Below, piece after piece: positions 2,580 to 45,702 of a stretch of 47,820 nt of DNA (within the stretch, counting starts at the first letter, position 1; each line of letters starts with the position of its first letter). The DNA comes from Bacteroidales bacterium (GTDB lineage: Bacteria > Bacteroidota > Bacteroidia > Bacteroidales > F082): the NCBI GenBank assembly GCA_016290215.1, contig JAEETH010000022.1:1-47820 (forward strand), read 5' to 3'. The notes below the pieces were generated by a model, which was not told the origin of the DNA, did not search any database, and saw only the letters and a list, made by a program, of their open reading frames with translations. The position numbers and the translations under genes were made by a program.

Positions 2580-2710
2580 AGATTCCCTTCGGAAATGGAA
2601 CACTTACTTCTGTTTATCGGCGGCGGCTTCAGATATCTGTCACCTTGTTGGCTTCTCAAGCCGCCGCATATTAATGCAATGCTTCACTCCATTCCCCGTA
2701 GGGGAATCTC
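2580..2710. repeat. Nested-palindrome intergenic element, copy 1
   Basis: This is the first of four copies of a roughly 130-bp element. The left end is AGATTCCC, a short loop, then GGAAATGGA. The right end is TCCATTCCCC, GTA, then GGGGAATCTC. Each end is a hairpin, and the ends are inverted copies of each other. In the centre CGGCGGCGGC pairs with GCCGCCGC. The element begins 20 bases downstream of the MntP-like stop codon (minus strand). Other copies are at 3868, 27975 and 45569. Confidence 0.85.
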
Positions 2711-2729
2711 TGTTAGTCCATAATTATCA

Positions 2730-3296
2730 TTATATCATCAAATCAGTAAACAAATACAATGCCGCAATCACCAGCATAAACACCGAGGCGGCAAACTCTA
2801 TGAAACTCACCTTCTTGATGATGCCCGGAGTGAACTCGGTGCGCACGGTGAAGAACGACCACAAAAAGCCTGCCACAGCAACTGCCACGAAAAACCAAAT
2901 CCCAAACGGCACGAAAAACACGCTCACCAACGAATAGATGAAGGTATTAATGGCGGCCAGAATGGAAAGCAGCAGGATGTCAATCTCCTTGCTGACCGTG
3001 TACAGCATCTTGCCTCTCAACGACCGCATGGAGTCGACGAAAAGCTTCACCGCCACCACGAGCATCATCGCAAAGACCATATACTCAGCGATATAGGTGA
3101 AAAGATGCGATATAAGTCGTCCCAAGCTATGGCCCAACAAAGCCATGATGCCTTGGCTGAGGCCAAACATGACGGGAATCCAAATCTTCTGCGCCGGCTT
3201 GTCGTCGGACTTGATCAAGCCCACCGAACGCGGCACCACGCTGGACGTGAGGCAGAGGATAAAGAGGATGCCTAATATGATGGAGGAAGTGGTCAT
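2730..3296 (-). CDS. MntP-like membrane protein lacking the conserved transmembrane aspartates
   Basis: This 188-residue protein has six predicted membrane helices and lines up by eye with the manganese efflux pump MntP: FGLSQGIMALLGHSLGRLIS corresponds to the MntP segment around ETLTPLIGWGMG. In MntP, acidic residues in helix 1 (SMDAFA) and helix 4 (SLDA) are central to transport. Here the matching places read LTSSVV and AINT, so both Asp residues are absent. It may export a different substrate or be a divergent paralogue. The ATG overlaps the stop of the upstream toxin gene by 4 bases (3293-3296), so all three genes of this cluster are probably co-translated. Family assignment is moderately sure and substrate is unknown. 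Confidence 0.6.
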   Translation of the reverse strand: MTTSSIILGILFILCLTSSVVPRSVGLIKSDDKPAQKIWIPVMFGLSQGIMALLGHSLGRLISHLFTYIAEYMVFAMMLVVAVKLFVDSMRSLRGKMLYTVSKEIDILLLSILAAINTFIYSLVSVFFVPFGIWFFVAVAVAGFLWSFFTVRTEFTPGIIKKVSFIEFAASVFMLVIAALYLFTDLMI

Positions 3297-3571
3297 TTTT
3301 CAAACAAATCAGAATGAGTTCCTGTGCGAACCAAAGACAATAGATTAATTCTGTCTTCCTTTGAATAAATCAGCAACCAATCAGGCTGAATATGACATTC
3401 GCGGCAGCCTTTATATTGCCCTTTAAGGGGATGATCCAAATTAGCTTCAGGAAGCTGAATGTCTTGAGCGAGTTTTTTGATTACTTCATTCAATTTTTCT
3501 TCAGGGAGGTTGCGCTTTAATGCAAGCTTCAAGTCTTTTTTATACTGAGTAGTAAAGAAAATAGCTCTCAT
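3293..3571 (-). CDS. RelE/YafQ-family mRNA interferase toxin
   Basis: This 92-residue protein matches YafQ-type toxins of the RelE superfamily, which cleave mRNA in the ribosomal A site. Visible family features are the N-terminal MRAIFFTTQYKKDLKLA, the central LDHPLKGQYKGCRECHI, the strand DWLLIYSKE, and the C-terminal segment LVRTGTHSDLF containing the His and Phe typical of YafQ active sites. It overlaps the antitoxin stop by 4 bases (ATGA, 3568-3571), the usual translational coupling of such pairs. It also overlaps the downstream MntP-like start. The length is normal and no key residue appears lost, so it should be active unless neutralised. Confidence 0.88.
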   Translation of the reverse strand: MRAIFFTTQYKKDLKLALKRNLPEEKLNEVIKKLAQDIQLPEANLDHPLKGQYKGCRECHIQPDWLLIYSKEDRINLLSLVRTGTHSDLFEK

Positions 3572-3780
3572 TCGTGAACCTTTTTCAAATAATCGTCAAA
3601 ATCCTCACAATAAACGCCTTTCCCTTCCTTAGCTTCACGAATAGCATTAAGGGTCAATGATTTACCAGAATCCGTTGTCGGGCGAACAGGTTGAATCAAA
3701 ACACCTAATGATTTTATCAAAGCCAACAAGGCCTTCCCTGTACTCGTCCGCTCGTTAACCGTAATTGTATATGTAGCCAT
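3568..3780 (-). CDS. Antitoxin of the YafQ-type module
   Basis: This 70-residue protein lies directly upstream of the YafQ-type toxin with a 4-base overlap, and is therefore its likely antitoxin and the autorepressor of the operon. The N-terminal half (TYTITVNERTSTGKALLALI) reads as a beta strand and helix suited to dimerisation and DNA binding. The C-terminal half is acidic and probably disordered until bound to the toxin (EAKEGKGVYCEDFDDYLKKV). I do not recognise the exact antitoxin family beyond its common occurrence in Bacteroidales. Identification rests on size, order and overlap. Confidence 0.8.
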   Translation of the reverse strand: MATYTITVNERTSTGKALLALIKSLGVLIQPVRPTTDSGKSLTLNAIREAKEGKGVYCEDFDDYLKKVHE

Positions 3781-3796
3781 AATTGTTGTTTTGCCG

Positions 3797-3804
3797 CAAA
3801 ATTA
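3797..3804 (-). promoter_or_regulatory. Probable -7 box of the antitoxin-toxin-MntP-like operon
   Basis: On the minus strand the sequence reads TAATTTTG, a full match to the Bacteroidetes -7 consensus TAnnTTTG, 16 bases before the antitoxin ATG. No convincing -33 TTTG stands at the expected distance, so the call is moderate. The leader would be very short. Confidence 0.5.
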
Positions 3805-3867
3805 CATATTTTTTCCCAAAACGGCACCGTTTCCATAAAACTATTTCGGAGGCACCTATAATTAATA

Positions 3868-3996
3868 GAGATTCCCTGCGGGAATGGAAAGTCCGTATTA
3901 ATGTTTCCAGCGGCGGCACATGGCACTTACAACCCGTAAGCTCCACAGGCCGCCGCTGGCGACAAAATCAAAGGCTCCATTCCCGAAGGAAATCCC
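3868..3996. repeat. Nested-palindrome intergenic element, copy 2
   Basis: The left end is GAGATTCCC, TGC, GGGAATGGA; the right end is TCCATTCCC, GAA, then a decayed GGAAATCC. The inner stem is GCGGCGGC with GCCGCCGC, and between them is a further small stem, CTTAC and GTAAG. The segment TACAAnnCGTAAGC is shared with copy 4 at 45569. The element begins 21 bases downstream of the tnaA stop codon (minus strand), where it could act as or with the terminator. Confidence 0.85.
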
Positions 3997-4017
3997 CTTG
4001 CAATTATCGATTAATCA

Positions 4018-5394
4018 TCATCCCAGTCTCTTGAACTGGCAGGTGAAGTGACGCATCAGCTCGGCTTCCCAGGTGATTTCGAGGCCACGCTTGATGCTGT
4101 CGCGACGGTCGTACACATTCTTCAGGGCCGCGGCAATCACGTCCATGTGGTTGTTGGTGTAGACACGGCGCGGGATGCAGAGACGCACGAAGTCGTTGCC
4201 ACCGAAACGGTTCTGGCGCGTGACCGGGTCACGGTCGGCAAGGACGTAGCCGATTTCGCAGGCACGGATGCCGGCTTCGAGATACAGCTCGCAGGTCAGC
4301 GTTTGGGCAGGGAACTCTTCCTTCGGGATGTTGGTCAGCACCTTGTCGGCGTCGACGAAGATGGCGTGGCCACCGGCGGGACGCTGGTAGGGAATGCCGT
4401 ACTCGTCGAGCTTGGCGGCGAGGTAGTGCACCTGCTTGATACGGGTTTCAACCATGTCGAATTCAATGTTTTCCTTCAGACCGACGGCCAAGGCATCCAT
4501 GTCGCGACCGTTCATGCCGCCGTAGGTGAGGAAGCCCTCGAAGGGGATGCAGAACAACTTGGCACCTTCGTACCAGTCTTTCTTGTTGGTGGCGATGAAG
4601 CCGCCCATGTTGACGAGACCGTCCTTCTTGGCACTCATGGTCATCGAGTCGGCATAGCTGAACATCTCGAGGGCGATTTCGCGCAGGGTCTTGTCGGCAT
4701 AGCCTTCTTCGCGCGTCTTGATGAAGTAGGCGTTTTCGATGAAGCGCGCGCTGTCGATGTTGACCGGCACGCCGTACTTGTGGCAGAGTTCACAGGTCTC
4801 GCGGATGTTTTTCATGCTGACGGGCTGACCGCCGACGGTGTTGTTGGTCACGGTGAGCACCATGAAAGGCACATTGCCTTGGTTCTCTTTCAGCACTTTT
4901 TCAAGCTTTTCGAGGCTGACGTTGCCCTTGAAAGGCACTTCGAGCTGGGTGTCGTAGGCCTCGGGCACGGTGACGTCGATGGCGAAAGCCTTACGGCTCT
5001 CGATGTGGCCCTTGGTGGTGTCGAAGTGGGCATTGCCGGGGACAACCATGCCGGGCTTCACGAGGTAGGAGAACAACACGTTCTCGGCAGCGCGGCCTTG
5101 GTGGGTGGGGATGACATACTCGAAACCAGTGAGTTCGGTGATGGTGTCTTTCATGTGGTAGAACGAGCGGGCGCCGCCGTAGCTCTCGTCGCCCATCATC
5201 ATGGCCGCCCACTGGCGGTCGCTCATGGCGCCGGTGCCGCTGTCGGTCAGCAGGTCGATGTAAACATAGTCGCTCTTCAGCATGAAGACATTCTGGTGGG
5301 CTTCGTTGAGCCACTTTTCGCGTTGTTCGCGGGTGGATTTCTTGATAGGTTCAACCATCTTGATTTTCCACGCTTCTGCAAATGGTAATTCCAT
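4018..5394 (-). CDS. tnaA: Tryptophanase (tryptophan indole-lyase)
   Basis: This 458-residue PLP enzyme splits L-tryptophan into indole, pyruvate and ammonia in the cytoplasm. It follows the Bacteroides tryptophanase sequence closely from end to end, including the start MELPFAEAWKIKMVEP, the cofactor-site stretch IPTHQGRAAENVLF (95-108), DSARFIENAYF (214-224) and the PLP lysine in MSAKKDG (Lys257, second of the pair). Tyrosine phenol-lyase is the close relative, but the overall match and the AEAWKIKMVEP start favour tryptophanase. No TnaB-type permease lies beside it. The best promoter is about 320 bases upstream, so a long leader made largely of short tandem repeats precedes the gene. Element copy 2 follows its stop. 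Confidence 0.93.
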   Translation of the reverse strand: MELPFAEAWKIKMVEPIKKSTREQREKWLNEAHQNVFMLKSDYVYIDLLTDSGTGAMSDRQWAAMMMGDESYGGARSFYHMKDTITELTGFEYVIPTHQGRAAENVLFSYLVKPGMVVPGNAHFDTTKGHIESRKAFAIDVTVPEAYDTQLEVPFKGNVSLEKLEKVLKENQGNVPFMVLTVTNNTVGGQPVSMKNIRETCELCHKYGVPVNIDSARFIENAYFIKTREEGYADKTLREIALEMFSYADSMTMSAKKDGLVNMGGFIATNKKDWYEGAKLFCIPFEGFLTYGGMNGRDMDALAVGLKENIEFDMVETRIKQVHYLAAKLDEYGIPYQRPAGGHAIFVDADKVLTNIPKEEFPAQTLTCELYLEAGIRACEIGYVLADRDPVTRQNRFGGNDFVRLCIPRRVYTNNHMDVIAAALKNVYDRRDSIKRGLEITWEAELMRHFTCQFKRLG

Positions 5395-5410
5395 GATTTT
5401 TATTTATTTA

Positions 5411-5938: not shown

Positions 5939-8900
5939 ATGAAAAGGAAATTATTACTTTTCGCGCTGCTAATGGCACTATTCGCGCCTTGGGCAGCACA
6001 AGCTCAAAATGAGCTGACAGTGTATGATGGGACGACCACAAGCTATTATGTTCCAGCATACATGGCCTATTTCGACGACTTCTCAAGAAGCCAATTCGTC
6101 ATCCCCGCCGATGATTTGGCAGAAATGAATGGCGGTACGATTAGCAGTATCAAGTTCTACACCAACAGTTCCAATGTGCCTTACACTGCAGTAAGCACTG
6201 CGGATGTCTATCTTATGGAAGTGGACTACACTTCAATGAGTGCTTTTGAGCCCACATCCAGTGGAACTATCGTTTACCAAGGTTTTCTCGACGTTGTGGC
6301 CGAAGGCGAAGGCGGTTCGCTCACCATCGAGTTCGACACTCCGTACACCTATGGTGGCGGTAATCTGCTCGTGGGCATTGAAAACACTACAGATGCCGGT
6401 TACAAGTTCATTTATTTCTATGGACAAACTGTTACTGGCGCCAGCGGTGCCGCATCCAATGGAAGTTCCTTGAGTAATGTCACCTTTACCCAGCGTAACT
6501 TCATCCCGAAGACCACCTTCACCTACATTTCTGGCAGTGGCCCCAACTGCGATAGGCCCGAGACAGTCACTGCTGATGACGTGACCTCCAACTCCGCCAC
6601 TATCAATTGGGCTGGCGGCAGCGGCACCTACAACATGGAATACAAGAAGACCTCCGACGAAACGTGGACCACTGTCCTCACGAACAGTTCAGCTACGTCA
6701 GCTGAGCTCATCGATCTCACTCCTGGCACGCAATACCAAGCCAAAGTGCAGAGCGTGTGCGTGTTCGACGATACCACTTTGTATAGAGATAAGAGCGTAA
6801 GCTTCAGAACCATGTATGGTATCCCGCTGATTGAAGAGTTCCCAACCTCCAGCGCTCCTGCCGATTGGAACAGATACAGCGGCCTGCTGAGCAATGTGAT
6901 GAACGGCACTGCATTGACTCCCCTCTCAGGCGGTTGGAATTTCGGCACTTCCAACGGCGTGTTTGACAGTCATGCCCGCGCCAACATCTATAGCACCGGC
7001 TGCCAGTACTGGTTGGTCACCCCATCCCTGTTGATGGAAAACAACGTGGAACTCAGTTTCGAAGTGGCTTATACCGCTTATAGTGGCACTGCTGCTACTC
7101 CCGCCCAAACGGGTACAGACGACAAGTTCGTTGTGTTAATCAACAACAATGGAACTTGGGAAATTCTCCGCCAGTGGGACAATGCTGGTTCGGAATATGT
7201 GTTGAACAACCTTAACCCCACGCCTCTCTATGTCAACATCGACTTGAGCAGCTATGCCGGACAAAACATCGCCGTGGCCTTCTATTGTGAATCCACCGCA
7301 AGTAACGCCGACAACAACCTGCACATTGACAATGTGAGCATCGACTACATTCCTTCATGCCCCAAGCCCTCTGGCTTGGCCTATTCTGATGTGACCGGCC
7401 ACACGGCCAACCTCACCTGGACCCCTGGCGCCGAAGGACAAACCCAATGGCAGATTTGCCTCAACGGTGACGAAGAGAACCTCATCCTCGTGAATTCGGC
7501 AGAAGGCGCCTACACCCTCACCGGCCTCACCGGCACAACGCCTTACACCGCCAAGGTGCGTGCCTACTGCAGCGAAACCGACCAAAGCCCCTGGAGCAAC
7601 CAAGTGAGCTTCACCACCGATGTGACCTGCGTCACTCCTACCGGCTTGACCAATTCCAACGTCACCAACCACAGCGCCACGCTGGATTGGACCAGCGACG
7701 CCACGGAATGGATTTTGGCTTATAGGCTCTATTCCGGCACCGACGACGACTATATTGAAATGCCCGTGACCGAGAAGCCTTACATCCTTGACGGCCTCAC
7801 TCCCGAAACCAGATACATGGTGAGAGTGCGTGCCAACTGCGGCGAAGAAGACGGCTTGAGCACTTGGAGCGGCACCACCAACTTCACCCTCCTCGAAGCC
7901 TATCCTGCTCCGAACAACTTGACTTGCGACAGCACCTTCGCTTACAGTGCTTACTTCAGCTGGAACGAACGCGGCTCCGCCACCGACTGGGAAGTGGCTT
8001 ACAAGCTCGCTACCGATCCCGACGATGCTTATATTATTGAGCCTACTCCTGATAACCATCCTTTCATGCTCGGCGACTTCGAGCCCCTTCTTCCTGGCAC
8101 TGACTATGTCTTAAGGGTGCGTTCAGTGTATTTCGACGCTGATACAACAAGCGCATGGAGCGCTGTGGTTCCTTTCACCACACTCCAAACCTGCCCCGCT
8201 CCCACGGAGGTTGTCGTCTACGACAGCACCATCAACGCCTACGGTGCCACTCTCAATTGGCACTCCCACTACAGCGACAGCTGGAACGTGAAGTATAGAG
8301 AACCCGCTTATGTAGATAATCCTCTCTTCCAAGAAGGTTTCAATGGAACGTCGATTCCTACGGATTGGACACAATATGTTGGCTTGTTTGACGAAACTAC
8401 AGGAACGGCTACTCTTACAAGTGGAACCAGATGGAATTTTGGCTCCAATAATGGTGTATTCGATTCACATGCCCGGACCAATGTCTACAGCACTTACCAA
8501 GCTTGGTTGGTCACTCCGAGCCTTACAATAGGCGACAATATTGGCCTCAGCTTCGATGTTGCATTAACCAAGTACAGTGGCACTTTGCAACCTGTTGATC
8601 CCACACAGCAACTTGACGACAAGTTCATCGTGATGATTTCGACCGATGAAAGAGCTACATGGACCATTCTTCGCAAGTGGGATAACGCAGGCTCAGAATA
8701 TGTCTATAACAATATTGCCTGCACTGAAAATGGAGAGAATGTATCTATTGACCTCAGCAGCTATGCTGGCCAAACTGTATACATCGCCTTCTACGGTGAA
8801 TCGACTGTAGCTGGCGGTGACAACAACCTCCACATCGACAATGTAGCCATCGGCACATTCGTTCCCGCCACCGCATGGCAGCCCGTTCTTGCCGAAGAAG

Positions 8901-11900
8901 TCCCGTTCGACCTCACTGGCCTCAATCCTGAGACCTACTACGAAGTCGTCGTTTCTGGCAACTGCAGTGAAGAAATCAGCGAAGAGAGCGCAAGTGTGTT
9001 CTTCACCACCAAGCCGAGCTGCCAAGCTCCCACCGAGCTGACCGTTGACAACGAGAGCGTTACCGCTCACGCTGCCACCCTCAGCTGGACTGAAAACGGC
9101 AGCGCTACCGAATGGGTGATTGAATACACCGCCGTCGTTAACGAAGAAGCCGTTACTAATACAATTAATGTCACCGAGAATCCTTACACGCTGACGGGCC
9201 TCATCGCCGAGACGCCTTACGCTGTGAAGGTGAAAGCCTTCTGCGGCCAAGGTGACGAAAGCCAATGGAGCAACACAGCTCGCTTCACCACCACTGTGGC
9301 TTGCCCCGCTCCTACCGAGCTGGCTGTTGACGAAGAGAGCATCACCGCCAACGGTGCCACCCTCACTTGGAACGGCACGAGCGACAACTATATCATAGAA
9401 ATGGCCGATTTGTCGGCTGCCACGACTTCTGAAGAGGTTGTAGAAGCCTTCTCCGAAAACTTCGAAGGTGGTTCGGTGCCTGCTGGCTGGACTAACGAAG
9501 GTGATGCCTCTTGGACGGTCGGCACTGGCGATTACTCCACCACAACAGGTGCCCATGGCGGCACTTATAACGCCATAATCAGCCACGGCACGACTGGCAA
9601 TGTGACTTATTTTGTCTCTCCTGTTATTGACTTGAGTGCATATACCAACGCCAAGCTCTCCTGCTGGTACGTGAACCGCCAGTGGGTTTCTGACATTGAC
9701 GGATTCGGCGTTTACTATCGCCTCGGCAATGGGGAATGGAACGAGCTCTTCAGCACCACTGCTGCCCACAGCTCATGGACACAGCTCTCACAATTGGCGC
9801 TTCCGAGCGAGTCCAACGTACAACTTGGATTCAAGTTTACGGACGGCTATGGTTATGGTGTCGGTCTTGATGACATCCTCATCGAAGGTAATTCATTTGC
9901 ATACGAATGGACTACATTTGACAGCGAAGCCACAAGCCCCTACACCTTTGAGGACCTTACTCCTGGTACCGAATACATGGTGCGCGTGATTGGCGATTGC
10001 GGCGAAGAAGGCGAAAGCGTCCCGAGCGCAGCCATCAGCTTCACCACTGTGGCCACCTGCGTGGTTCCTACCGACTTTGCTGCTACCGATGTCACTGCCC
10101 ACACCGCCACATTGGTTTGGAACGGCGAGAATGACAGCTATGTCGTGAACTACAGAGTAGCTGCTGGCACCCAAGATTGGATTAATGTTGACTTTGAAAA
10201 CGGTTTACCCGATGGCTGGACTAACGAAGGTGCTTCCTCTTGGTCGGTCGGCACTGGTGATTACACCGCAGCAACGGGTGCCCATGGCGGCAGCTATAAC
10301 GCATTGATCAACCACGGCACGACTGGCGATGTGACTTATTTAGTCTCACCTGCTATTGACCTGAGCGAACAGAGCGACCTTTCTCTCAATTTGTGGTACA
10401 TCAACAGACAATGGGTTAACGACATCGATGGATTCGGTATTTATTACCGTATCGATGGCGGTGCATGGAACGAAATCTTTGCCACCACCTCAGCTCATAG
10501 TAGTTGGACTGAGTTTAGCCAAGCACTTCCTGCAGGCGCTTACGCTGCAAACTGCCAATTCGGCTTCAAGTTTACGGACGGATACGGTTACGGTGTTGGT
10601 TTGGATGATATCAACATCAGTATACCCACTCCCGCTGGCGAATGGATGACTGCCACCGCCAACGAAAACACAGTCGTACTTTCCGGCCTCGTTGGTGAGA
10701 CCACTTACGAAGCTATGGTTCAAGCTGTGTGCTCTGGAGACGATTCATCAGCATTCACTGACATCATCACCTTCACCACTGAAGTGGCTTGCCCCGCTGT
10801 GACAGAACTTGCTGCCGACACTGTCGGTACTCATGAGGCTGTGATCAGCTGGGTTGAGACTGGCGAAGCCACCGCATGGCAAATCTGCGTGAACGGCGAC
10901 GAGGACAATCTGATTGAAGTTACTGAAACCACTTACACCATGGAAGGCTTGACTCACAATACCGCCTACACCGTGAAGGTTCGCGCCTACTGCGGCGAAG
11001 AAGACGGTGCCAGTGCATGGAGAACAGTTAACTTCCATACAGAGATTGCTTGCCACGAGCCCACGAACCTCGTTGCAGATAACATCGGCACCGAATCGGC
11101 CACGCTGATGTGGGAAGGCGAAAGCGAAAGCTACGTGGTGCAATACAGGCCTTGGGAACAAGTGGGCGATGACCAGGCTGCTCCTTCAACGATGACCACC
11201 TTCACCTACGACCTGAGCGACTACAGCGGCATGGGCTCCATCGCCATCCGCCACTACAACATATCTGATATATTCAGTGTGAACGTGGATGACATCGTGG
11301 TGACCAACGCCCAAGGTGAGACCGTGTTCTCCGAAGACTTCGAAGGCGGCATTTCTTCCGCTATCTCCATTATGGACTTGGACGGTGATGGATACACTTG
11401 GAGTATGGGATCGACCAATACCGACTCTCAAGGTAATCCTACCGGCAACGGAAACTATTACGTTACTTCATCAAGCTATGACAACAATGTGGGTGCTTTG
11501 ACTCCCGACAACTGGTTAGTGATTTCCGGCGTTGAATTAGGTGGCCAACTTACCTTGGTGGCTCGTGCCCAAGACCCAGAATGGACAGGCGATAACTTCG
11601 GCGTGTTTGTATCAGCTGAAGAAGGTGCTGGTGAAGAAATCGTTGACGGCGACACCCAAATCGATCTTTGGGATCTGACACCCAACACCTCATACGCATG
11701 GCAAGTGAAGGGCGTTTGCGGCGAAGAGGAAAGCCATTGGGTTGCTTCCTTCTTCACCACTTTGGACGATTACCTGACCTTTGTTACCGACGGTGATTGG
11801 AACGATGCCAACAACTGGAATCCTGCCGAAGTGCCCACCACTGACAAGAATGTGCATATCCAAGCTAACGCTATCATCCCCGCTGGCGTGGTGGCCGAAG

Positions 11901-12958
11901 CCAACAATGTCACTATCGAAAGTGGTAGCATCACCATCAAGGACGGTGGTCAGATGAAGCTGAACTCACAAGCTGAAGTAGTGATGGAAAAGGAAATCAC
12001 TGGCTACGGCGAGGGCAACGGTAACTACTACCTCATTGCCAGCCCGTTCACCGGCAGAACCCAATTCGGTTATTCGACATGGAACCATGTTGATAGCTTG
12101 ATCTACGGTACCTACGACCTCTACACCTACGATAATACCTATGGTGAAGATGAAGAATGGGTGAACTACAAGGCTCATCCTGAGCACATCGCCTTCCAAT
12201 CCGAAGCCCAAGGCAACCAAGGCCTGTTTGAAAAGGATGGCTATCTCTATGCCAACCAGAATGATATTACCTTGGTATTCACTGGTAAGATCAACAAGAA
12301 TATTGGCAAGTCCGTGATAGATTCCATTATTTACGACACCATCAACAAAGGCTGGGCTCTTGTGGGTAACCCCTACGCTTGCGATGCCTATCTTAGCTTC
12401 GTTGATGACGAAGGCGAAATGATGGAAGCCAACTACTATGTGATGAACGCCGCTGGCGACAACCTCGAACAGGCTGAAACCGCCAATGGCATCGCTCCTT
12501 TGACTGCTGCTTTCGTTCACTTCGATGCCGATAGCAAGTTCTACATCAATTCAGAGATGCCTAATACTGCCAAGACCAACAGAACCGGCAAGTTCATCAT
12601 GAACCTGAACCAAGAGGGCAACACGGTTGACAAGGCTGTGCTCCGCTTCGGCAAGGGCATGGGTCTCGAAAAGATGAGCCTGAAGAACAACAGCAAGCTC
12701 TACTTCTCGCACAACGACAAGGACTATGCTGTGGTCTACACGATGAGACAAGGTGAAATGCCTGTCAGCTTCAAGGCTGAGACCGCTGGTAGCTACACCA
12801 TCAACTTCGCTGCCGACGGCGTGAGCTTCAAGGAGCTCGTCCTCGTCGACAACGTCAACGAAACGAAGGTCGACCTGCTCGCCAACCCGAGCTACACCTT
12901 CGAGACCGAAGCCGGTGAGTTTGCCGGACGCTTCACGATTGTTTACAGAGTGAAGTAA
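5939..12958 (+). CDS. Giant secreted multidomain protein: ten Fn3 domains with jelly-roll modules
   Basis: This 2339-residue protein has a signal peptide (residues 1-22, ending AAQAQ) and a beta-rich N-terminal domain (23-200). About ten fibronectin type III units follow, opening with C-x-x-P motifs near residues 203, 474, 564, 655, 752, 1028, 1122, 1371, 1618 and 1704. Five jelly-roll (choice-of-anchor J / MAM-like) modules are present: the first, near 300-470, follows an Fn3 unit; the other four sit inside Fn3 units, between the YxVxYR strand and the LTPGTxY strand. Two pairs are close duplicates (about 300-470 with 794-974; 1168-1318 with 1414-1561). The C-terminal part (about 1972-2339) contains the GWALVGNPYAC region shared with the two giants downstream, but no YPNP sorting domain. 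It is probably a surface adhesin or matrix protein; the ligand is unknown. Some part could be a degradative accessory module, but no catalytic domain is seen. Confidence 0.85.
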   Translation: MKRKLLLFALLMALFAPWAAQAQNELTVYDGTTTSYYVPAYMAYFDDFSRSQFVIPADDLAEMNGGTISSIKFYTNSSNVPYTAVSTADVYLMEVDYTSMSAFEPTSSGTIVYQGFLDVVAEGEGGSLTIEFDTPYTYGGGNLLVGIENTTDAGYKFIYFYGQTVTGASGAASNGSSLSNVTFTQRNFIPKTTFTYISGSGPNCDRPETVTADDVTSNSATINWAGGSGTYNMEYKKTSDETWTTVLTNSSATSAELIDLTPGTQYQAKVQSVCVFDDTTLYRDKSVSFRTMYGIPLIEEFPTSSAPADWNRYSGLLSNVMNGTALTPLSGGWNFGTSNGVFDSHARANIYSTGCQYWLVTPSLLMENNVELSFEVAYTAYSGTAATPAQTGTDDKFVVLINNNGTWEILRQWDNAGSEYVLNNLNPTPLYVNIDLSSYAGQNIAVAFYCESTASNADNNLHIDNVSIDYIPSCPKPSGLAYSDVTGHTANLTWTPGAEGQTQWQICLNGDEENLILVNSAEGAYTLTGLTGTTPYTAKVRAYCSETDQSPWSNQVSFTTDVTCVTPTGLTNSNVTNHSATLDWTSDATEWILAYRLYSGTDDDYIEMPVTEKPYILDGLTPETRYMVRVRANCGEEDGLSTWSGTTNFTLLEAYPAPNNLTCDSTFAYSAYFSWNERGSATDWEVAYKLATDPDDAYIIEPTPDNHPFMLGDFEPLLPGTDYVLRVRSVYFDADTTSAWSAVVPFTTLQTCPAPTEVVVYDSTINAYGATLNWHSHYSDSWNVKYREPAYVDNPLFQEGFNGTSIPTDWTQYVGLFDETTGTATLTSGTRWNFGSNNGVFDSHARTNVYSTYQAWLVTPSLTIGDNIGLSFDVALTKYSGTLQPVDPTQQLDDKFIVMISTDERATWTILRKWDNAGSEYVYNNIACTENGENVSIDLSSYAGQTVYIAFYGESTVAGGDNNLHIDNVAIGTFVPATAWQPVLAEEVPFDLTGLNPETYYEVVVSGNCSEEISEESASVFFTTKPSCQAPTELTVDNESVTAHAATLSWTENGSATEWVIEYTAVVNEEAVTNTINVTENPYTLTGLIAETPYAVKVKAFCGQGDESQWSNTARFTTTVACPAPTELAVDEESITANGATLTWNGTSDNYIIEMADLSAATTSEEVVEAFSENFEGGSVPAGWTNEGDASWTVGTGDYSTTTGAHGGTYNAIISHGTTGNVTYFVSPVIDLSAYTNAKLSCWYVNRQWVSDIDGFGVYYRLGNGEWNELFSTTAAHSSWTQLSQLALPSESNVQLGFKFTDGYGYGVGLDDILIEGNSFAYEWTTFDSEATSPYTFEDLTPGTEYMVRVIGDCGEEGESVPSAAISFTTVATCVVPTDFAATDVTAHTATLVWNGENDSYVVNYRVAAGTQDWINVDFENGLPDGWTNEGASSWSVGTGDYTAATGAHGGSYNALINHGTTGDVTYLVSPAIDLSEQSDLSLNLWYINRQWVNDIDGFGIYYRIDGGAWNEIFATTSAHSSWTEFSQALPAGAYAANCQFGFKFTDGYGYGVGLDDINISIPTPAGEWMTATANENTVVLSGLVGETTYEAMVQAVCSGDDSSAFTDIITFTTEVACPAVTELAADTVGTHEAVISWVETGEATAWQICVNGDEDNLIEVTETTYTMEGLTHNTAYTVKVRAYCGEEDGASAWRTVNFHTEIACHEPTNLVADNIGTESATLMWEGESESYVVQYRPWEQVGDDQAAPSTMTTFTYDLSDYSGMGSIAIRHYNISDIFSVNVDDIVVTNAQGETVFSEDFEGGISSAISIMDLDGDGYTWSMGSTNTDSQGNPTGNGNYYVTSSSYDNNVGALTPDNWLVISGVELGGQLTLVARAQDPEWTGDNFGVFVSAEEGAGEEIVDGDTQIDLWDLTPNTSYAWQVKGVCGEEESHWVASFFTTLDDYLTFVTDGDWNDANNWNPAEVPTTDKNVHIQANAIIPAGVVAEANNVTIESGSITIKDGGQMKLNSQAEVVMEKEITGYGEGNGNYYLIASPFTGRTQFGYSTWNHVDSLIYGTYDLYTYDNTYGEDEEWVNYKAHPEHIAFQSEAQGNQGLFEKDGYLYANQNDITLVFTGKINKNIGKSVIDSIIYDTINKGWALVGNPYACDAYLSFVDDEGEMMEANYYVMNAAGDNLEQAETANGIAPLTAAFVHFDADSKFYINSEMPNTAKTNRTGKFIMNLNQEGNTVDKAVLRFGKGMGLEKMSLKNNSKLYFSHNDKDYAVVYTMRQGEMPVSFKAETAGSYTINFAADGVSFKELVLVDNVNETKVDLLANPSYTFETEAGEFAGRFTIVYRVK

Positions 12959-19802: not shown

Positions 19803-22800
19803 TCAGGGTTTCACCATGAACACTACCTTTGAACCCGTATTGCCACTTGTGGAAACTTGAGGAGCCTTGGTGAAGACAATCGTCTGACCTTCGACGTGCA
19901 CAAGCACACCTTCCATCGGGGCGATGGCGACGCTGCTGTCGGTTTCCACCAACGCGGCACCACTTTCGTCTAATCTGTAGTAAGGCACATTGATAGTGAC
20001 ATTGCAGGGATACGGGTTACCGATGAGGTACCAGCCGTCGAGCGTGGTGTTTCCTGCACCGCTATTCGTCATCAAGCCGGCCACCGTAATGGTGCCACCC
20101 ATAGCCTTGGCGTAGAGATAACCATTGCCCGTGGTGAGATTGAAAGGCTCCACTTTATAATTCTGCCATTCCTCATCTGTGGCTTCTTGGTCGAAGTAAT
20201 AGAGGTCGTAGTTGCCGCCAACCATGCCCAACTGAGCGGGATCTTGGTTGTTGACAGGCGAACTGATGAAGTAGAAGCTGTCGACAACCTCAGCCTGGTA
20301 AGGATTAATGGTCTTCCTCATCGTGGCATTCACGTTGTTGGAAGTCACCAACTGACCGCCTTCTTCGATAAGCAGTCTGTCGGCACCCAACTCGTTGGTA
20401 ACGGAACTCACATTCAGCACATAGCCGCTCGGGATGATGGACGGGCCAGCGATGGCCACAGTGCCTTCAGGATTGTCGACAAACACGCGGGTGTAACGTT
20501 CGTCGGCTCTTCCTGCATACTTATAAAGCTGAATGGCTTTTTGAGCCGAGTAAGTGCTCGACTTGAAGTAACGGAATCTGGTTTGTCCAGAAGTGGAATT
20601 ATATCTCAAATGAGCACCACCTGCACCTACGATGTTCATCTCATCGTCATAGTACAGGCTATTGGCATACGCCACATTCGGATCGGTATCTAAGCCATTT
20701 GAGTCGTCTCCTCTACCAATGTACCTGCCACTTGCGCTCTTGATGGAATAGCCATTCTCAATTGCCTCAATCGTAAACTTAGCCGCATTAATTGTCGCAT
20801 TGGAAGCAATGGCACCGTTAGCGATGCTCACCGCTATGGTATTGCCTACTGCATCCAAAGTTTCCAAACCTCCATTGAAGGCCACATTACCTTCTTCATA
20901 CACAATCAGGTAGTCGCCTGACCAATCACCGAGGTCTTCTGTCACCTTGACATATTGGTTTTCCACCGATGGATCTGAATAGTTATACACGGCGTAGAAG
21001 GTCATGTCTTCCATGATCGTATAGGAAGTTTCAGCAGGCATTACATTTTCGACGTCGTTGGGGTCGAGAGTCCAGCCAATGAATTCAAACGCATCGATAT
21101 TGGCACCATCGGCCAAAGTGATGGCTTCGCCTACGACAGCCATTTGCGGTGCAGTCTCCACGCCATTGACGGAATAGACGTATTGGTATTCGGTGGTGGC
21201 TTCCACAATCACAGCCTCAACCGTCACCGCGCTGGCTGGCATGGAGAACTGATTGTCGCTGACGGCAACAGTACCCTCGTTTTCGTCGGTCACATTCCAT
21301 TCGATGAAGAAGTAGCCTTCGGCAAGCTCATAGCTCAACGTGACCGTCTCACCTTCGGCTGCAACGGCCTTATCAGCAGAGATAGAGCAACCGGCAAACT
21401 CAGGCTGGTTCAACACGATGTCGTATCTTTCAATCCACCCAATTTCGGCAGCAACAGTCACATTGCTGGCTGGCATGGTGAACTGGTTGCCGTTGACTGC
21501 AACAGCATCGCCATTTACGTCGGTCACAACCCATCCAGACAAGAAGTAATCTTCGGCAAGCTCATAGCTCAACGTGACAATCTCGCCTTCAACAGCCATG
21601 GTCTTGTCGGCAGCGATGGAACAACTGTCAATCTCAGGTTGGTTGAGCTCGATGGCATAGAAGTCGTCAGGAGTATAGAGATGAATGTCGCCCAAACGCA
21701 CATTACCTACCGAACGGGTCCAATAAATCCATCTGATGTACCTCACATCCGAAGACAAGTCGTCGAAAGTCTTTGTCTCGTAGCCACTGGTGGATATCAC
21801 GTTAGCAATGGGTCTCAACGGATCATCGTCACTCATCTGGGCAATCATTTCAGCTGTTGTATAGACCGCTATGATAGTCCAATCGAGTCCGTTGGTTGAA
21901 GTCTGCAAATAGAAATAACCGCCTCTGAAACCATTAGCACCCTGAATGTCGAACGTAAGTCTTGCTGGCTCTTCTTCGAAAGCCAACTCAATATAGTCTT
22001 GTTGGCCCGTCTCTGAATCAGGGGCGTCAAAATTCAGATAAGGATAATTGTCATAGTATTCACCCAAACCATCGACTTTAAGGCCTTCGGGTATAGAATC
22101 CAAACGTGCCAAAACATCAGCATCAGACTCAGAGGCAAGCTTCTCATAAGCATAACGGAACGGCAAAGGAGCAAATTCGCACTCGTTTTGGGTAATGGAG
22201 GCGATGTTGGACACCACTTCGTTGCCCGACCAGTCACCGCCAATCACTTTCAGATAGGCGGTACGTGGAACCTCAGTCTCAGCAGCGGCATTGATATGGA
22301 AGTTCAATTCACTCCCATTCAGCGTAACCGTAATCCAATCGTATTCAGCCGCATTTCCTTGTTCATCGCAAAGCTGCACCCTCGGCGGGTTACCCTGGAA
22401 ATAAATGTTATAATAACCAACATTCAAATGACCATCCTTCTCTCCGCAGTCGGTCGATTCCGAACTGACGGTGATGGAAGAGGGGCGTTCCCATTCGTAG
22501 ATGATACTATACTGTTTGAACTCTTTTATTCCATGATATATTTGCAAGTCGCCAAGCACGGTAACGATATCGCCCTTGCGAAGGTCATCCTCCGAATCAA
22601 TAGGTTCGCCGCCTAAGCCTTTGCCACGATACACGTAAAGCTGATTGGCTTCACCAGCAGTTCCATCGTCAGAGATGTAGTAATTGGCATTATTATAATG
22701 GCCTGTCTCAATGATAGGATCGGTGCACACGATACCGCGCACATAGACCTGATCAATGTCCGAAATAGAATCCATAAGGTCAAGAATCTCCTGTACGGTG

Positions 22801-25800: not shown

Positions 25801-26597
25801 ACAATTGCATCGGAATATGTAACAGTGTGTGACAAATAAGAATTAGTCCATGTAGCAAAGCCATCAATTTCAGTAAAGTCATACGTTACTTCTTCACCGC
25901 TAGGACCTGGGCCAGGAGGCGTTGTGTTTTCCGTATATTGGGCGGTAAAGGAAACATCACCGATGACGGGGAATGTATAACCGCCTGCATACTCATATTC
26001 GGTAAAGTCATCCATCCAACCTGTGAAGGTGAAGCCATCTTTGTGGGCCGAGGGCAGGGTGTGGGAGCCTGCTACGACTTCGTTTTCCAATTCTGGGAAA
26101 TCGTCGTTGCCATCAAAGGTGCCATCTGCTACATCGAAAGTGACGGTGTAGGTGGGAGCAGGTGGTGTGTCACCTGACAAACCTTCGGTTAGTTTTACAC
26201 TATTCACATAAAAAGTACCATGACCTGTTCCTGAGCCTGTGTTATTTGTAAAATTAATAACGATAGGACCCACGGTAGCTGAACCTTCGAATATTGCATC
26301 GGCTGTTGTATTACCAGTAATAGTTTGGGTACCCCAAGAAGTTCCATCTACGAGAACTTCGATAGTTACTGGATTTGCAATAGTTTTGTTGTACCTCCAA
26401 TTAATAGTAACAGCTTCAATTGGATAGGATTGTGCATCAATGTTAATCGAAGGAATTGCATTGTTGTTGTTCAACAAAGTGCTTTGTGTAATGTTCATGT
26501 CGTGAACATCACCTGCATCAGCCCTCATCCCCATCGGGATAGCAAGAAACGCGAGCAGCGCAAAGGCTGCCATCAGAAATGTAAATCTTCTTTTCAT
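19803..26597 (-). CDS. Giant secreted multidomain protein with BACON-like, chitobiase-C, OB-fold and shared C-terminal modules
   Basis: This 2264-residue protein starts MKRRFTFLMAAFALLAFLA, a signal peptide ending near MRADA. Rough order of domains: InlB-like (150-225); BACON (376-470); a 100-residue unit present three times (473-577, 713-812, 1376-1473), each with the pattern V-x-F/L-CDxxG and ending in an (N/T)QxAY- or QNE-type strand; discoidin-like segments (586-710, 1483-1643); trefoil-like segments (816-970, 1883-2030). There are two chitobiase/hexosaminidase C-terminal sandwiches (973-1043, 1173-1250), each followed by an OB-fold DUF6359-like domain (1053-1170, 1256-1370), and tandem Flg_new-type repeats (1646-1796). 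The last 210 residues are the region shared with the other giants (GPSIIPSGYVL, SSPV, GWYLIGNPYPC, APMEGVLVHV). Such proteins are thought to bind surfaces or glycans; the ligand is unknown. Downstream gene 49 bases away in the same direction. Confidence 0.8.
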   Translation of the reverse strand: MKRRFTFLMAAFALLAFLAIPMGMRADAGDVHDMNITQSTLLNNNNAIPSINIDAQSYPIEAVTINWRYNKTIANPVTIEVLVDGTSWGTQTITGNTTADAIFEGSATVGPIVINFTNNTGSGTGHGTFYVNSVKLTEGLSGDTPPAPTYTVTFDVADGTFDGNDDFPELENEVVAGSHTLPSAHKDGFTFTGWMDDFTEYEYAGGYTFPVIGDVSFTAQYTENTTPPGPGPSGEEVTYDFTEIDGFATWTNSYLSHTVTYSDAIVTFASASHQASTITNQPVTKGGAVTLVLTDGSTMSSATFVCTQWTTKPQTITLHYSTDGGETYTSTGITSTNFTITDNNLPVGTNAVKITFSSTSNQVGIASATIVKVGTTPSTNPSITAANVEIAYDATSGAIEYSINNPVEDGVLSAASSESWLTLGTVDATVPFTCTANQGINARTATVTLTYTYGENDEIATKEVTVTQAGNPNIASITVNPATMDVTAEEATGTLIVIYNNISEVLAEVYFCDAEGQTATYEWIDADIDDNNNVYYFIEANEGEARTAYLKVYALDDNAEDVYSGLVTVNQAAYEAPTVATLPFAFDGGRSDIANTDGLTQEGLDSDYSSSPKLKFNSAGDWVMLYFDGTPGKLTFDIKGNSFSGGTFTVQTSEDGETFTDLETYTNLTTTVLSEEFDNLGENVRYIKWVYTNKVSGNVALGNITLALPDTAPSIMLSSYEVSAQATETEGTLGVTYHNITEVVADVYFCDANGDAVTYDWFNANIDENNDVHYVIAANEGAARTAYFKVHAPDNNNEDIYSDLVTINQAAYVAPPTGDTYTLYSGELVEGDYVIFYNGAAMKNTVVNNRLSYEEVTPEDGVIVTEDATIVWHIAPSDGYWTIYNVAADAYAAGTNSKNTAQMLADGTDALALWTVSGTNTYDFVNYGRSQASSDFNNKYLRRNGTVGFGCYASSTGGTLSLYRSTGGVPYVATPTFSPLPGSYTEDQEVTITCTTQDAVIYYTTDGSEPTTESDVYAEPIMVTEGITTIKAIAVLDTIVSRMATGVYNINPNAPGTFENPYTVPQAMDNTPASGMSDFVYVQGIVSSIVTTADQVVQYHNISYNISADGSTSNQMYVRYGKNLYDSDFYSIDELHEGDRVVIYGQLERSGGTPRIAAYNYLVSLERDVEPPFFSPGSCMLTNDENAIVYLFCDTYEAEIHYTMDGTDPDMNSPLFDESEPINLQGVTGTVTIKAIAYYEGMHSAVTTATYRMVAPGTPGTMETPYTVQEILDLMDSISDIDQVYVRGIVCTDPIIETGHYNNANYYISDDGTAGEANQLYVYRGKGLGGEPIDSEDDLRKGDIVTVLGDLQIYHGIKEFKQYSIIYEWERPSSITVSSESTDCGEKDGHLNVGYYNIYFQGNPPRVQLCDEQGNAAEYDWITVTLNGSELNFHINAAAETEVPRTAYLKVIGGDWSGNEVVSNIASITQNECEFAPLPFRYAYEKLASESDADVLARLDSIPEGLKVDGLGEYYDNYPYLNFDAPDSETGQQDYIELAFEEEPARLTFDIQGANGFRGGYFYLQTSTNGLDWTIIAVYTTAEMIAQMSDDDPLRPIANVISTSGYETKTFDDLSSDVRYIRWIYWTRSVGNVRLGDIHLYTPDDFYAIELNQPEIDSCSIAADKTMAVEGEIVTLSYELAEDYFLSGWVVTDVNGDAVAVNGNQFTMPASNVTVAAEIGWIERYDIVLNQPEFAGCSISADKAVAAEGETVTLSYELAEGYFFIEWNVTDENEGTVAVSDNQFSMPASAVTVEAVIVEATTEYQYVYSVNGVETAPQMAVVGEAITLADGANIDAFEFIGWTLDPNDVENVMPAETSYTIMEDMTFYAVYNYSDPSVENQYVKVTEDLGDWSGDYLIVYEEGNVAFNGGLETLDAVGNTIAVSIANGAIASNATINAAKFTIEAIENGYSIKSASGRYIGRGDDSNGLDTDPNVAYANSLYYDDEMNIVGAGGAHLRYNSTSGQTRFRYFKSSTYSAQKAIQLYKYAGRADERYTRVFVDNPEGTVAIAGPSIIPSGYVLNVSSVTNELGADRLLIEEGGQLVTSNNVNATMRKTINPYQAEVVDSFYFISSPVNNQDPAQLGMVGGNYDLYYFDQEATDEEWQNYKVEPFNLTTGNGYLYAKAMGGTITVAGLMTNSGAGNTTLDGWYLIGNPYPCNVTINVPYYRLDESGAALVETDSSVAIAPMEGVLVHVEGQTIVFTKAPQVSTSGNTGSKVVFMVKP

Positions 26598-27973: not shown

Positions 27974-27974
27974 T

Positions 27975-28104
27975 GAGATTCCCTTCAGGAATGGAGTCCT
28001 GCTTGTTTATTAATCGGCGGCAGATAGAGTTTATTGATAGTAAAACTTCATCCGCCGCCGCTTAATAGATTTATGCCAACTCCATTCCCCAAGGGGGAAT
28101 CTCA
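27975..28104. repeat. Nested-palindrome intergenic element, copy 3
   Basis: The element fills the entire space between two converging stop codons. The left end is GAGATTCCC, TTCA, GGAATGGA and the right end TCCATTCCCC, AAG, GGGGAATCTC. CGGCGGC pairs with GCCGCCG in the centre. Since it is the only sequence between the two genes, it probably ends both transcripts. Confidence 0.88.
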
Positions 28105-39003: not shown

Positions 39004-39006
39004 CAT

Positions 39007-41705: not shown

Positions 41706-41715
41706 AATGACAGAC

Positions 41716-44220: not shown

Positions 44221-44248
44221 TTTTAAATTTTAAATCTTGAATTTTAAA

Positions 44249-45520
44249 TTAATGTGAATTCACCGTGGTGTAGCCCACCAACTCGTCATAGCCTTTGAGG
44301 GCGTTATAGTAGTAGAAATACAGTTTGTAGACGTTATTGGTTTCCCAGTGGTTGCCTGCGGTCAGATCAGTGAGCACTTCATGGTTAGTGCGATCGATGG
44401 TGACGAACATGAAGTTGTAATAGCCTTGCTTGAGCACCATGGAACAGGTGTAGCCCCGCAAGCGATAGTCGTAGCGCATCTTGTTGCTCTCGTTGAAGCA
44501 CCAGTCGTTGAGCGCACCCATGATGTAGAGGTCCTCATGCGTCAACGGGGCTTCACTTTTATAGAAGAAGTTGACGCGGCAATAGTCGGCTTCAGTGGCA
44601 TTGTCGAGGTCTTCGTTTTCCACATAGATGAATTTCTCGCCATGGATGTCCTCATAGGAAGCGTAGGCTTTCCTCGCCCTCGATTCACAAGTCGCGATGT
44701 CGATTTCGAAGCTCTCGTCAGTCTGACGGATGTGGGCCAAATTCTCCGACTGGAAATAGAAATTGCTCGTGTTGAAGCGCCTGTATTGGTTGGTGGCATC
44801 AAAAACCGTTTGCGGATTGTGTTCAAACGAGAGGTAATCGGGATAAACGTAGGTGGGCTTCAATCCTTCGGCGGCATTGTCCCAACGTCCATTCTGGCGA
44901 ATGGTTAAATAGCTGTATTGCTGTGTATTACCCGTCAAATAGTTATTCATCGCCACCCTTACATCGAGTTGCTGATGCGTGTTGGTGAGGGCCAAATCAT
45001 CCGGATAACGCGGCACTGTGGCACTCACTTGGGCTTTTTGGTCTACCACCATGAATCGTCTCGTGAAATAGAGGTCGTTCAGGTCGTCGCCATAAACGAT
45101 GAGCAAGTAGTTGCCTGAAACGGTCGGCATCATGTCTTCCTTCGGGAACCTGAGCTGATAGTTGGCATAATCTATCAAGGTATTGCGCGAAAAAGCATAG
45201 TCATCCAAACGGTCCGATTCGAAGCCAGAGGCATATTGTATGCGTTGTATGTCGGTAGGTTCCCAATCGTGGCTGCAATGGATGAAGGTGTAATTCAAAA
45301 TTTCCCCATCGCCGTCAATGATGTCGAACGACAGCGTGAGGCGTTCCACCATATCCTCCAAAGGAATGATGGGGTCGTTCAGCTGGTTGCCGTCGGCATA
45401 AAGCAACACGGTCTGCACTTCAGGCTTGTAGTTGAGGTTGCCGCAAGGCAGGTCGAAATCCTGGGCAAAGAGGCCTGTCGCCCCGCAGAGCACCAGAATT
45501 AATAAGGTAATTCTTTTCAT
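44249..45520 (-). CDS. Type IX secretion system plug protein (DUF5103)
   Basis: The ATG at 45520 (MKRITLLILVLCGATGLFAQ) gives a signal peptide; a longer frame upstream runs through the palindromic element and is rejected. The 423-residue product fits DUF5103, now called the T9SS plug protein, which closes the large SprA-type outer-membrane translocon on its periplasmic side. Visible family landmarks are the first beta domain with LSFDIIDGDGEILNYTFIHCSHDWEPTDIQ, the stretch RFPKEDMMPTVSGNYLLIVY, and a second domain with LYIMGALNDWCFNESNKM. No lipobox is seen. It is placed upstream of priA with a 28-base gap and is the only T9SS plug found in the window. Confidence 0.85.
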   Translation of the reverse strand: MKRITLLILVLCGATGLFAQDFDLPCGNLNYKPEVQTVLLYADGNQLNDPIIPLEDMVERLTLSFDIIDGDGEILNYTFIHCSHDWEPTDIQRIQYASGFESDRLDDYAFSRNTLIDYANYQLRFPKEDMMPTVSGNYLLIVYGDDLNDLYFTRRFMVVDQKAQVSATVPRYPDDLALTNTHQQLDVRVAMNNYLTGNTQQYSYLTIRQNGRWDNAAEGLKPTYVYPDYLSFEHNPQTVFDATNQYRRFNTSNFYFQSENLAHIRQTDESFEIDIATCESRARKAYASYEDIHGEKFIYVENEDLDNATEADYCRVNFFYKSEAPLTHEDLYIMGALNDWCFNESNKMRYDYRLRGYTCSMVLKQGYYNFMFVTIDRTNHEVLTDLTAGNHWETNNVYKLYFYYYNALKGYDELVGYTTVNSH

Positions 45521-45540
45521 CGCATTGGGATTATATTGGG

Positions 45541-45548
45541 CAAAAATA
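45541..45548 (-). promoter_or_regulatory. Probable -7 box of the T9SS plug - priA operon
   Basis: The minus strand reads TATTTTTG, 20 bases before the ATG at 45520. It is preceded by further T-rich sequence and then by the palindromic element. No exact -33 box was found. Confidence 0.5.
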
Positions 45549-45568
45549 CAAAAATTAATCCAAATGTA

Positions 45569-45702
45569 GAGTTTCCCCTTCGGGGAATGGAGCATCAAAA
45601 TGGTATTATTAAGCGGCGGCCCGTAGAGCCTACAAAACGTAAGCGCCACAAGCCGCCGCATTAAACATTCTTGCTTATCTCCATTCCCGCAAGGGAATCT
45701 CA
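45569..45702. repeat. Nested-palindrome intergenic element, copy 4
   Basis: Left end GAGTTTCCCC, TTC, GGGGAATGGA; right end TCCATTCCC, GCAA, GGGAATCTC. Central stem GCGGCGGC with GCCGCCGC, and the TACAAnnCGTAAGC segment shared with copy 2. It ends one base before the HIT gene's stop codon and lies just upstream of the plug-protein promoter, so it separates two minus-strand transcription units. Confidence 0.88.

What the first reader, a model, noticed from the sequence alone, without database searches (positions are those of the whole stretch)
2580..45702. A 130-bp nested-palindrome element occurs four times, always just after a stop codon
Copies at 2580-2710, 3868-3996, 27975-28104 and 45569-45702 share an exact plan. 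There is a hairpin at each end (GATTCCC with GGGAAT; ATTCCC with GGGAATC), the two ends are inverted copies of each other, and a central stem GCGGCGGC/GCCGCCGC is embedded at similar distances. Two copies share an extra stem around CGTAAGC. All four begin or end within about 21 bases downstream of a stop codon (MntP-like, tnaA, lipoprotein plus DUF4837, HIT). Copy 3 fills the entire gap between two convergent genes. Ends are conserved while the interior drifts. This looks like a mobile palindromic element (MITE- or REP-like) co-opted, or selected, as a transcript end or RNA-stability structure. I do not recognise it as a named family.
Basis: seen in the sequence. Interest (0 to 1): 0.72.

Follow-up and report, generated by a model that had tools for sequence, protein, structure and literature searches.

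The report
Gene-end palindromic repeats in gut Bacteroidales
More than eighty copies of a 130-base folding DNA repeat, most of them right behind the stop codon of a gene, are scattered through the genome of a bacterium whose named relatives live in animal guts; the repeat comes and goes, yet its hairpin parts appear to stay conserved where it lands while the DNA between them drifts, which hints at a use at gene ends.

Summary
The four window copies belong to a dispersed family: 83 copies in the window's genome (a lower bound), matches in 20 of 40 same-genus genomes and in none of the other genera among 295 genomes of the order. Plan: end hairpin ATTCCC-NNN-GGGAAT, 20 nt of free sequence, GCGGCGGC, about 31 nt, then the mirror image. 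In 52 of 83 copies an end lies within 30 nt of a stop codon. Empty and filled sites at the same gene ends fit gain, and loss to one leftover hairpin. In 26 flank-matched pairs, boxes and stems differ by 2-3% against 16-18% in arms, core and loops, so the boxes look constrained in place; some ascertainment bias remains. No adjacent Y1 transposase (0 of 42 loci), no target duplication, no RNA-strand signature. Best reading: a REPIN-like, non-autonomous mobile palindrome, probably moved in trans by a single-strand transposase (inferred), whose hairpins are then kept as gene-end structures (role inferred). A new variant of a known kind.

The parts
2578..2711 (-). Copy 1, between the MntP stop and the endonuclease I gene
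   Evidence: R1 94.2 bits; sequence
2582..2596 (.). Copy 1 end hairpin far from the stop (ATTCCC-TTC-GGAAAT)
2620..2627 (.). Copy 1 box GCGGCGGC
2660..2667 (.). Copy 1 box GCCGCCGC
2691..2707 (.). Copy 1 end hairpin on the MntP side
   Evidence: distance to the stop 22 nt
3867..3997 (-). Copy 2, after the tnaA-like lyase stop
   Evidence: R1 105.3 bits; fold -79.5 kcal/mol on the minus strand
3871..3885 (.). Copy 2 end hairpin far from the stop
3910..3917 (.). Copy 2 box GCGGCGGC
3949..3956 (.). Copy 2 box GCCGCCGC
3979..3993 (.). Copy 2 end hairpin on the lyase side
   Evidence: distance to the stop 24 nt
27974..28104 (.). Copy 3, fills the gap between two convergent stop codons
   Evidence: R1 91.3 bits; the matching gap in relative G018 is 4 nt in the alignment
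27978..27992 (.). Copy 3 left end hairpin
28014..28021 (.). Copy 3 box (TCGGCGGC variant)
28054..28061 (.). Copy 3 box GCCGCCGC
28084..28100 (.). Copy 3 right end hairpin
45568..45703 (-). Copy 4, directly after the HIT stop
   Evidence: R1 109.3 bits
45572..45588 (.). Copy 4 end hairpin far from the stop (TTTCCCC type)
   Evidence: end types
45613..45620 (.). Copy 4 box GCGGCGGC
45652..45659 (.). Copy 4 box GCCGCCGC
45683..45698 (.). Copy 4 end hairpin next to the HIT stop
   Evidence: distance to the stop 5 nt

Best explanation
It is a non-coding, dispersed, REPIN-like palindromic element of about 130 bp: two inverted end hairpins and two inverted inner boxes held at fixed spacing by 20-nt arms of free sequence. 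It settles at the 3' edge of genes, usually right after the stop codon. Shown by comparison of genomes: dispersal, presence and absence at the same gene ends, single leftover hairpins, crowding at stops. Supported, with a remaining ascertainment caveat: constraint on the hairpin parts in place while arms, core and loops drift. Inferred: it is non-autonomous and moved in trans by a Y1/HUH single-strand transposase, because it has hairpin ends and no target duplication. Inferred: after landing, the hairpins are kept because they serve as a gene-end structure, in place of or beside a terminator, as RNA or as extruded DNA.
For: Family and plan; arms 18-21 nt in 55 (left) and 58 (right) of 60 parsed copies, core 31 nt in 43 of 60. 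One genus only. Stop placement: 52 of 83 copies; 50 of the 60 stop-adjacent ends lie at -1 to 15 nt. In tandem gene pairs the stop side holds a median 4% of the leftover gap (24 of 32 pairs usable, KS p=1.4e-6); convergent leftovers have median 14 nt (13 pairs) against 48 nt for 31 element-free gaps. Presence and absence: MntP junction filled in 2 of 30 genomes shown, one of them seen by eye; DUF4837 end filled in 3 of 24 shown; HIT end filled in 2 of 20 shown. Leftover hairpins. In-place constraint, 26 pairs: outer stems 6/309, inner ends 14/515, boxes 9/416 changed, against arms 177/983, core 127/799, loops 30/186. Equal stem runs (3/3 in 101 ends, 4/4 in 35) and TNC in 101 of 113 triloops. 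No target duplication in 83 copies. Intrinsic terminator at 2 of 56 element gene ends against 17 of 121 controls, p=0.038.
Against: No transposase beside it: none of the 42 Y1 loci of ten element-bearing genomes carries it within about 1.7 kb, less at contig ends, and the two G000 Y1 genes sit among other hairpin repeats. No GT[AG]G foot. No strand bias in folding. 29 box pairs are broken against 6 compensated. The constraint test uses pairs picked by hand, from loci fetched because they hold element-like sequence, and its parser demands near-intact boxes in one member; counting only halves not needed to fetch a locus leaves boxes 6/272, outer stems 6/202 and arms 113/642, but fully decayed copies could still be missed. 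The terminator contrast is weak and no T-tract follows the element in the flanks read. 31 of 83 copies have no stop within 30 nt.
Confidence: 0.6

Rival explanations
1. Purely selfish REPIN or MITE. Boxes are conserved across copies only because a mobile copy must keep its recognition sites; stop-side placement is what survives purging of insertions in genes and promoters.
For: Patchy copy number in the genus; presence in short junctions that are empty in relatives; small convergent leftovers, where another place would break a gene.
Against: Does not predict that boxes and outer stems stay at 2-3% while arms reach 18% between flank-matched copies, nor the crowding within 0-15 nt of stops in tandem gaps that leave tens of nt on the start side. 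The first point carries the ascertainment caveat.
Confidence: 0.3
2. DNA-level site: the inverted boxes at fixed spacing are bound by a protein (nucleoid, gyrase-like or segregation factor) or extrude as a cruciform where supercoils gather behind and between genes.
For: Two-fold symmetric; spacing fixed but arm sequence free and unpaired; no RNA-strand signature; loops TNC, i.e. GNA on the other strand, in 101 of 113 triloops; convergent gaps filled.
Against: No protein partner was looked for or found; the crowding at stops is tighter than supercoiling would seem to need; the 6 double changes in the box stem point to base pairing.
Confidence: 0.25
3. MITE derived from a DDE insertion sequence.
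For: Short non-coding element with terminal inverted repeats (T)GAGATTCCC...GGGAATCTC(A).
Against: No excess of target duplications at offsets 0-5 and lengths 2-10 in 83 copies. No element opened by a gene was noticed among the 100 of 158 end hairpins that one search listed.
Confidence: 0.07
4. A vertically inherited RNA element (terminator or stability hairpin), not mobile.
For: Copies shared at the same gene end by relatives with homologous flanks.
Against: Empty gene ends in most relatives at the window loci; patchy presence.
Confidence: 0.08

Closest known systems
REPIN (REP doublet forming a hairpin; Bertels and Rainey 2011, PMC3116915, abstract and passages read)
   Same: Two inverted conserved end motifs around a less conserved spacer whose length matters; extragenic; tandem clusters; excision events; mobile and non-autonomous.
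   Different: About 130 bp here, against 71 bp between the invariant 16-mers of the GI type; a second, inner conserved box pair; no GT[AG]G foot; no adjacent RAYT found.
REP/BIME, GTAG and CGTC superfamilies (PMC3733652, passages; PMC6006769, passages and section 13)
   Same: Lie mostly downstream of genes, between convergent or same-direction genes; GTAG ends often supply a stop codon; a 'double foot' palindrome can arise by central deletion of an inverted dimer, like the leftover hairpins here. CGTC repeats are reported from Bacteroidetes.
   Different: REPs are 20-40 bp with a GTAG or CGTC end motif; here a fixed four-part unit without either in the consensus.
Atypical hairpins beside subclass 2.6 TnpA-Y1 genes of Bacteroidetes (PMC6006769, section 13)
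   Same: Bacteroidetes; genomic copies of non-canonical hairpins tied to Y1 transposases.
   Different: Their sequences are in a figure that is not held, so no comparison was possible; none of the 42 Y1 loci examined bears this element.
ERIC, YPAL, RUP, NEMIS and similar MITEs (named in PMC3733652, passage; sizes recalled)
   Same: Short palindromic elements next to genes, transcribed with neighbours.
   Different: Different host phyla; sequences not compared; no target duplication here.
BrickBuilt MITE of Porphyromonas gingivalis (PMC4596501, listing and start of abstract; PMC10969869, passage)
   Same: Strictly intergenic MITE in Bacteroidales.
   Different: Contains a minisatellite; sequences not compared.

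Membership tests
REPIN/BIME | Inverted doublet of a conserved hairpin-forming end motif | tested here: met
REPIN/BIME | Variable spacer of constrained length | tested here: met
   60 of 83 copies parsed: arms 18-21 nt in 55 and 58, core 31 nt in 43
REPIN/BIME | Spacer sides pair, with compensatory changes | tested here: inconclusive
   box stem in 161 copies: 6 double, 29 broken, 6 G-U; arms and core halves: no excess pairing
REPIN/BIME | GT[AG]G tetranucleotide at the hairpin foot | tested here: not met
   consensus foot reads (T)GAG outside and GGAG inside
REPIN/BIME | Cognate RAYT gene flanked by copies | tested here: not met
   0 of 42 Y1 loci, all those listed for ten element-bearing genomes; several of these genomes are incomplete, the window's 85%
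REPIN/BIME | Extragenic, many copies per genome | tested here: met
DDE-type MITE | Target-site duplication | tested here: not met
DDE-type MITE | Parent IS with the same ends | tested here: inconclusive
   none noticed among 100 of 158 listed ends; lone ends at C36:4540, C95:15456 and C118:2378 were not followed up
Intrinsic terminator | GC hairpin followed by a T-tract | tested here: not met
   flanks read
Rfam RNA family | Match above gathering score | tested here: not met
   0 matches in the window

The most novel reading that the evidence does not exclude
A portable gene-end module: a mobile palindrome with two conserved box pairs read at fixed geometry across 20-nt spacers of free sequence, which plugs in behind stop codons, can take the place of a native terminator and is then kept by the host as a bidirectional transcription or supercoiling boundary, so that each copy carries its own neutral control (the arms) for measuring selection.
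Probability: 0.2. Interest if true: 0.75.

Novelty: new variant of a known kind. Interest (0 to 1): 0.52.

Why it matters
Whether extragenic palindromes such as REPINs are only selfish or are kept by the host is an old question. Here conserved boxes and freely drifting arms lie in the same 130 bp, so the arms act as a built-in neutral control, and filled, empty and leftover-hairpin versions of the same gene end exist in related species. That makes the question testable by sequence alone and by swapping gene ends.

Tried and rejected
Rejected: Rfam families (none). RNA-strand asymmetry suggested by the four window copies, which fold better on the minus strand, did not hold over 44 copies. Arms as paired stems: no excess complementarity. 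RAYT beside the element: the two Y1 genes of the window genome lie in other hairpin arrays, and 0 of 42 Y1 loci carry the element. Lone end hairpins as an independent family or required target: 0 in G000, one or two in 7 of 40 genomes, some of which look like ordinary terminators. Viral carriage: 15 pattern hits, 0 with the full model. Target duplication: none. Single strict-pattern hits in Proteobacteria, Streptomyces and others look like chance; they were not run through the model. My idea that arms are guides was not tested.

Limits. Gene calls are my own longest-ORF choice. The order-wide search scored 11 candidates per genome with stricter filters. In one search, 31 pairs picked by hand were given, 5 did not parse and were dropped; some pairs share a member and at least one (L147/L153) lies within G000. 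In one search about half of the 311 ends were anchored wrongly, so only the runs and triloops quoted are used and its p-value is not. The element in G364 behind MntP was missed by the script and seen by eye. The tree rests on two proteins with rough ORF ends, and G019 is misplaced by a partial sequence.
Full report
The four copies. Each folds much better than shuffled sequence on both strands. Pfam confirms the neighbours as MntP, a beta-eliminating lyase (tnaA-like), DUF4837 and HIT; the 184-aa protein left of copy 3 has no Pfam match. Copy 3 lies between two convergent stops with 4 nt to each.

A genome-wide family. The strict half-site pattern hits 43 places in the window's genome and its reversed control 0; the end-hairpin pattern 158 against 4. 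A covariance model from 22 copies gave 150 scored hits, the cap, all at E 2.3e-13 or better. The stretches fetched around them plus the window held 164 hits on two strands that reduce to 83 separate copies. Of these, 60 parse fully: arms 18-21 nt in 55 (left) and 58 (right), core 31 nt in 43. Some copies form arrays: 55-bp half units on C63 and 150-bp units on C140.

Distribution. The strict pattern is in 16 of 40 same-genus genomes and the model in 20 of 40 at E 1e-5, G000 included; two of these, G011 and G039, are weak. It is rich in some relatives and absent from others near to them on a rough two-protein tree. In 295 genomes drawn from the order, 183 genera, only two genomes had it, both of this genus, with 11 candidates scored per genome. 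Among the 80 of 110 named stretches listed, those with full copies are Bacteroidales assemblies, several titled from goat, yak, buffalo or horse gut. Fifteen viral contigs matched the pattern but none the full model.

Placement. Of 83 copies, 44 have one end and 8 both ends within 30 nt of a stop codon; 50 of those 60 ends lie at -1 to 15 nt, while distances to starts are mostly 16-90 nt. In 24 of 32 tandem pairs that could be used, the stop side holds a median 4% of the leftover spacer (KS p=1.4e-6); in 13 convergent pairs the leftover is 14 nt in the median against 48 nt in 31 element-free gaps. The end next to a stop reads ATTCC in 52 of 60 cases and TTTCC in 2; elsewhere TTTCC occurs 24 times against 52 ATTCC (p=4e-5), so the element has a polarity relative to the gene. 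The remaining 31 copies have no stop within 30 nt; many of these are in arrays, clusters or divergent gaps, and a few follow the T-tract of a terminator.

Gain and loss. Protein-anchored searches do not use the element as bait. Behind MntP, 2 of 30 genomes shown carry the element, G000 and, seen by eye, G364; the other 28 show spacers from a few to about 110 nt. Behind DUF4837, G000, G028 and G029 of 24 shown carry it with unrelated arms; G018 has 4 nt between the convergent genes, and in several others the neighbour is another gene. Behind HIT, G000 and G019 of 20 shown carry it where, by eye, G003 and G018 have a hairpin-plus-T terminator and others a different palindrome. Two sites with 93-99% matching flanks hold only one end hairpin where a relative has the whole element (L201 against L048, L034 against L096), which fits deletion between the two ends. 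Lone hairpins are rare. No target duplication is seen.

Constraint in place. Copies with matching flanks in different species are 95-100% identical in the closest cases while 500-bp flanks are 80-95%. Over 26 flank-matched pairs, outer stems changed at 6 of 309 sites, inner ends 14 of 515, boxes 9 of 416, against arms 177 of 983, core 127 of 799 and loops 30 of 186. The outer stem was not part of the pattern that fetched these loci; its contrast with the arms has p=4e-16. Counting only halves not needed to fetch a locus, boxes are 6 of 272, outer stems 6 of 202 and arms 113 of 642. Both members of a pair still had to be recognised as elements, and the parser wants near-intact boxes in one of them, so this is strong but not free of bias. 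At the three protein-anchored gene ends the seven elements seen keep their plan, one (G019) with a compensated box change; there is one possible remnant (G016 behind HIT).

Pairing. In 161 copies the box stem shows 6 two-sided compensatory changes, 6 G-U and 29 broken pairs. End stems keep equal C and G runs (101 ends with 3/3, 35 with 4/4) and loops are TNC in 101 of 113 triloops, which is GNA on the other strand; that GNA loops are unusually stable in DNA is recalled, not looked up. Correction of imperfect palindromes during replication could also make two-sided changes (recalled). Arms and core halves show no pairing beyond chance, and the sense strand folds no better than the antisense. 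RNA function is therefore not shown.

Partner. Both Y1 transposase genes of G000 lie among other hairpins, and none of the 42 Y1 loci listed for ten element-bearing genomes has the element. Hairpins beside some of these genes (for example CATCCCGTAGGGATG) share the CCC-NNN-GGG form, which makes a Y1 origin plausible but unproven.

Comparison with print. REPINs (PMC3116915, abstract and passages) share inverted conserved ends, a length-constrained spacer and excision. GTAG REPs (PMC3733652, passages) also lie mainly behind genes and can supply the stop codon. A survey of Y1 proteins (PMC6006769, passages and section 13) mentions atypical hairpins next to Bacteroidetes subclass 2.6 genes. PMC6060812 (passages) reports inverted repeats behind E. 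coli stops, the longer ones mostly terminators. The searches showed, in the listings and passages seen, no description of this element; most subscription papers are not held. A GT[AG]G foot and an adjacent RAYT were tested and not met, so it is not filed as a REPIN, though it behaves like one.

Mechanism. Most likely it is moved in trans as a hairpin-ended single strand and inserts without duplicating its target (inferred); insertion or survival favours the place just behind a stop (shown as placement); it can be lost by deletion between its ends (shown as leftover hairpins); the boxes and end stems are then kept (supported). Genes with an element next to the stop carry an intrinsic terminator in 2 of 56 cases against 17 of 121 (p=0.038), a weak hint that it stands in for one.

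Noticed in passing
L249 (G000 C88:71074-71418) and L291 (G000 C72:30380-30724): Two Y1 (PF01797) transposase genes, each among its own short hairpin repeats (CCCCTACGGGG type; GCAGGGACTCACGTCGCCTGC type).
   Followed up: partly
L373, L394, L384: Related Y1 genes of G019, G021 and G029 flanked by CATCCCGTAGGGATG hairpins, with the same-looking gene downstream in all three (by eye).
   Followed up: partly
L218, L219, L220, L222, L224 (behind HIT): A different palindrome of the type GTAGAGACG...CGTCTCTAC occupies the same place behind HIT in five relatives; a sixth (L221) is similar.
   Followed up: no
L152:2216-2480 (G000 C63:32115-32379): Tandem array of 55-bp half elements (end hairpin, arm, one box).
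   Followed up: no
L143:11848-11981 and L157:6895-7170: A second small palindrome (GATTCGGCGGAGCCAATC type) appears inside or fused to the end hairpin of the element.
   Followed up: no
L148 (G000 C128:7000-22800); G239 C6:89892-107657: Clusters of copies; in G000 they lie between ORFs of about 2.4 and 1.3 kb and three share a right arm, suggesting local duplication. For G239 only the positions were seen.
   Followed up: partly
window 2730-3296 and 1501-2556: MntP and an endonuclease I gene with a secretion tail look adjacent in the relatives displayed, with spacers of a few to about 110 nt.
   Followed up: partly
G000 C36:4540, C95:15456, C118:2378: Lone end-hairpin matches without a partner at the usual distance in the listing.
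   Followed up: no
window 5939-12958 and 19803-26597: Two very long ORFs (2339 and 2264 aa), not examined.
   Followed up: no
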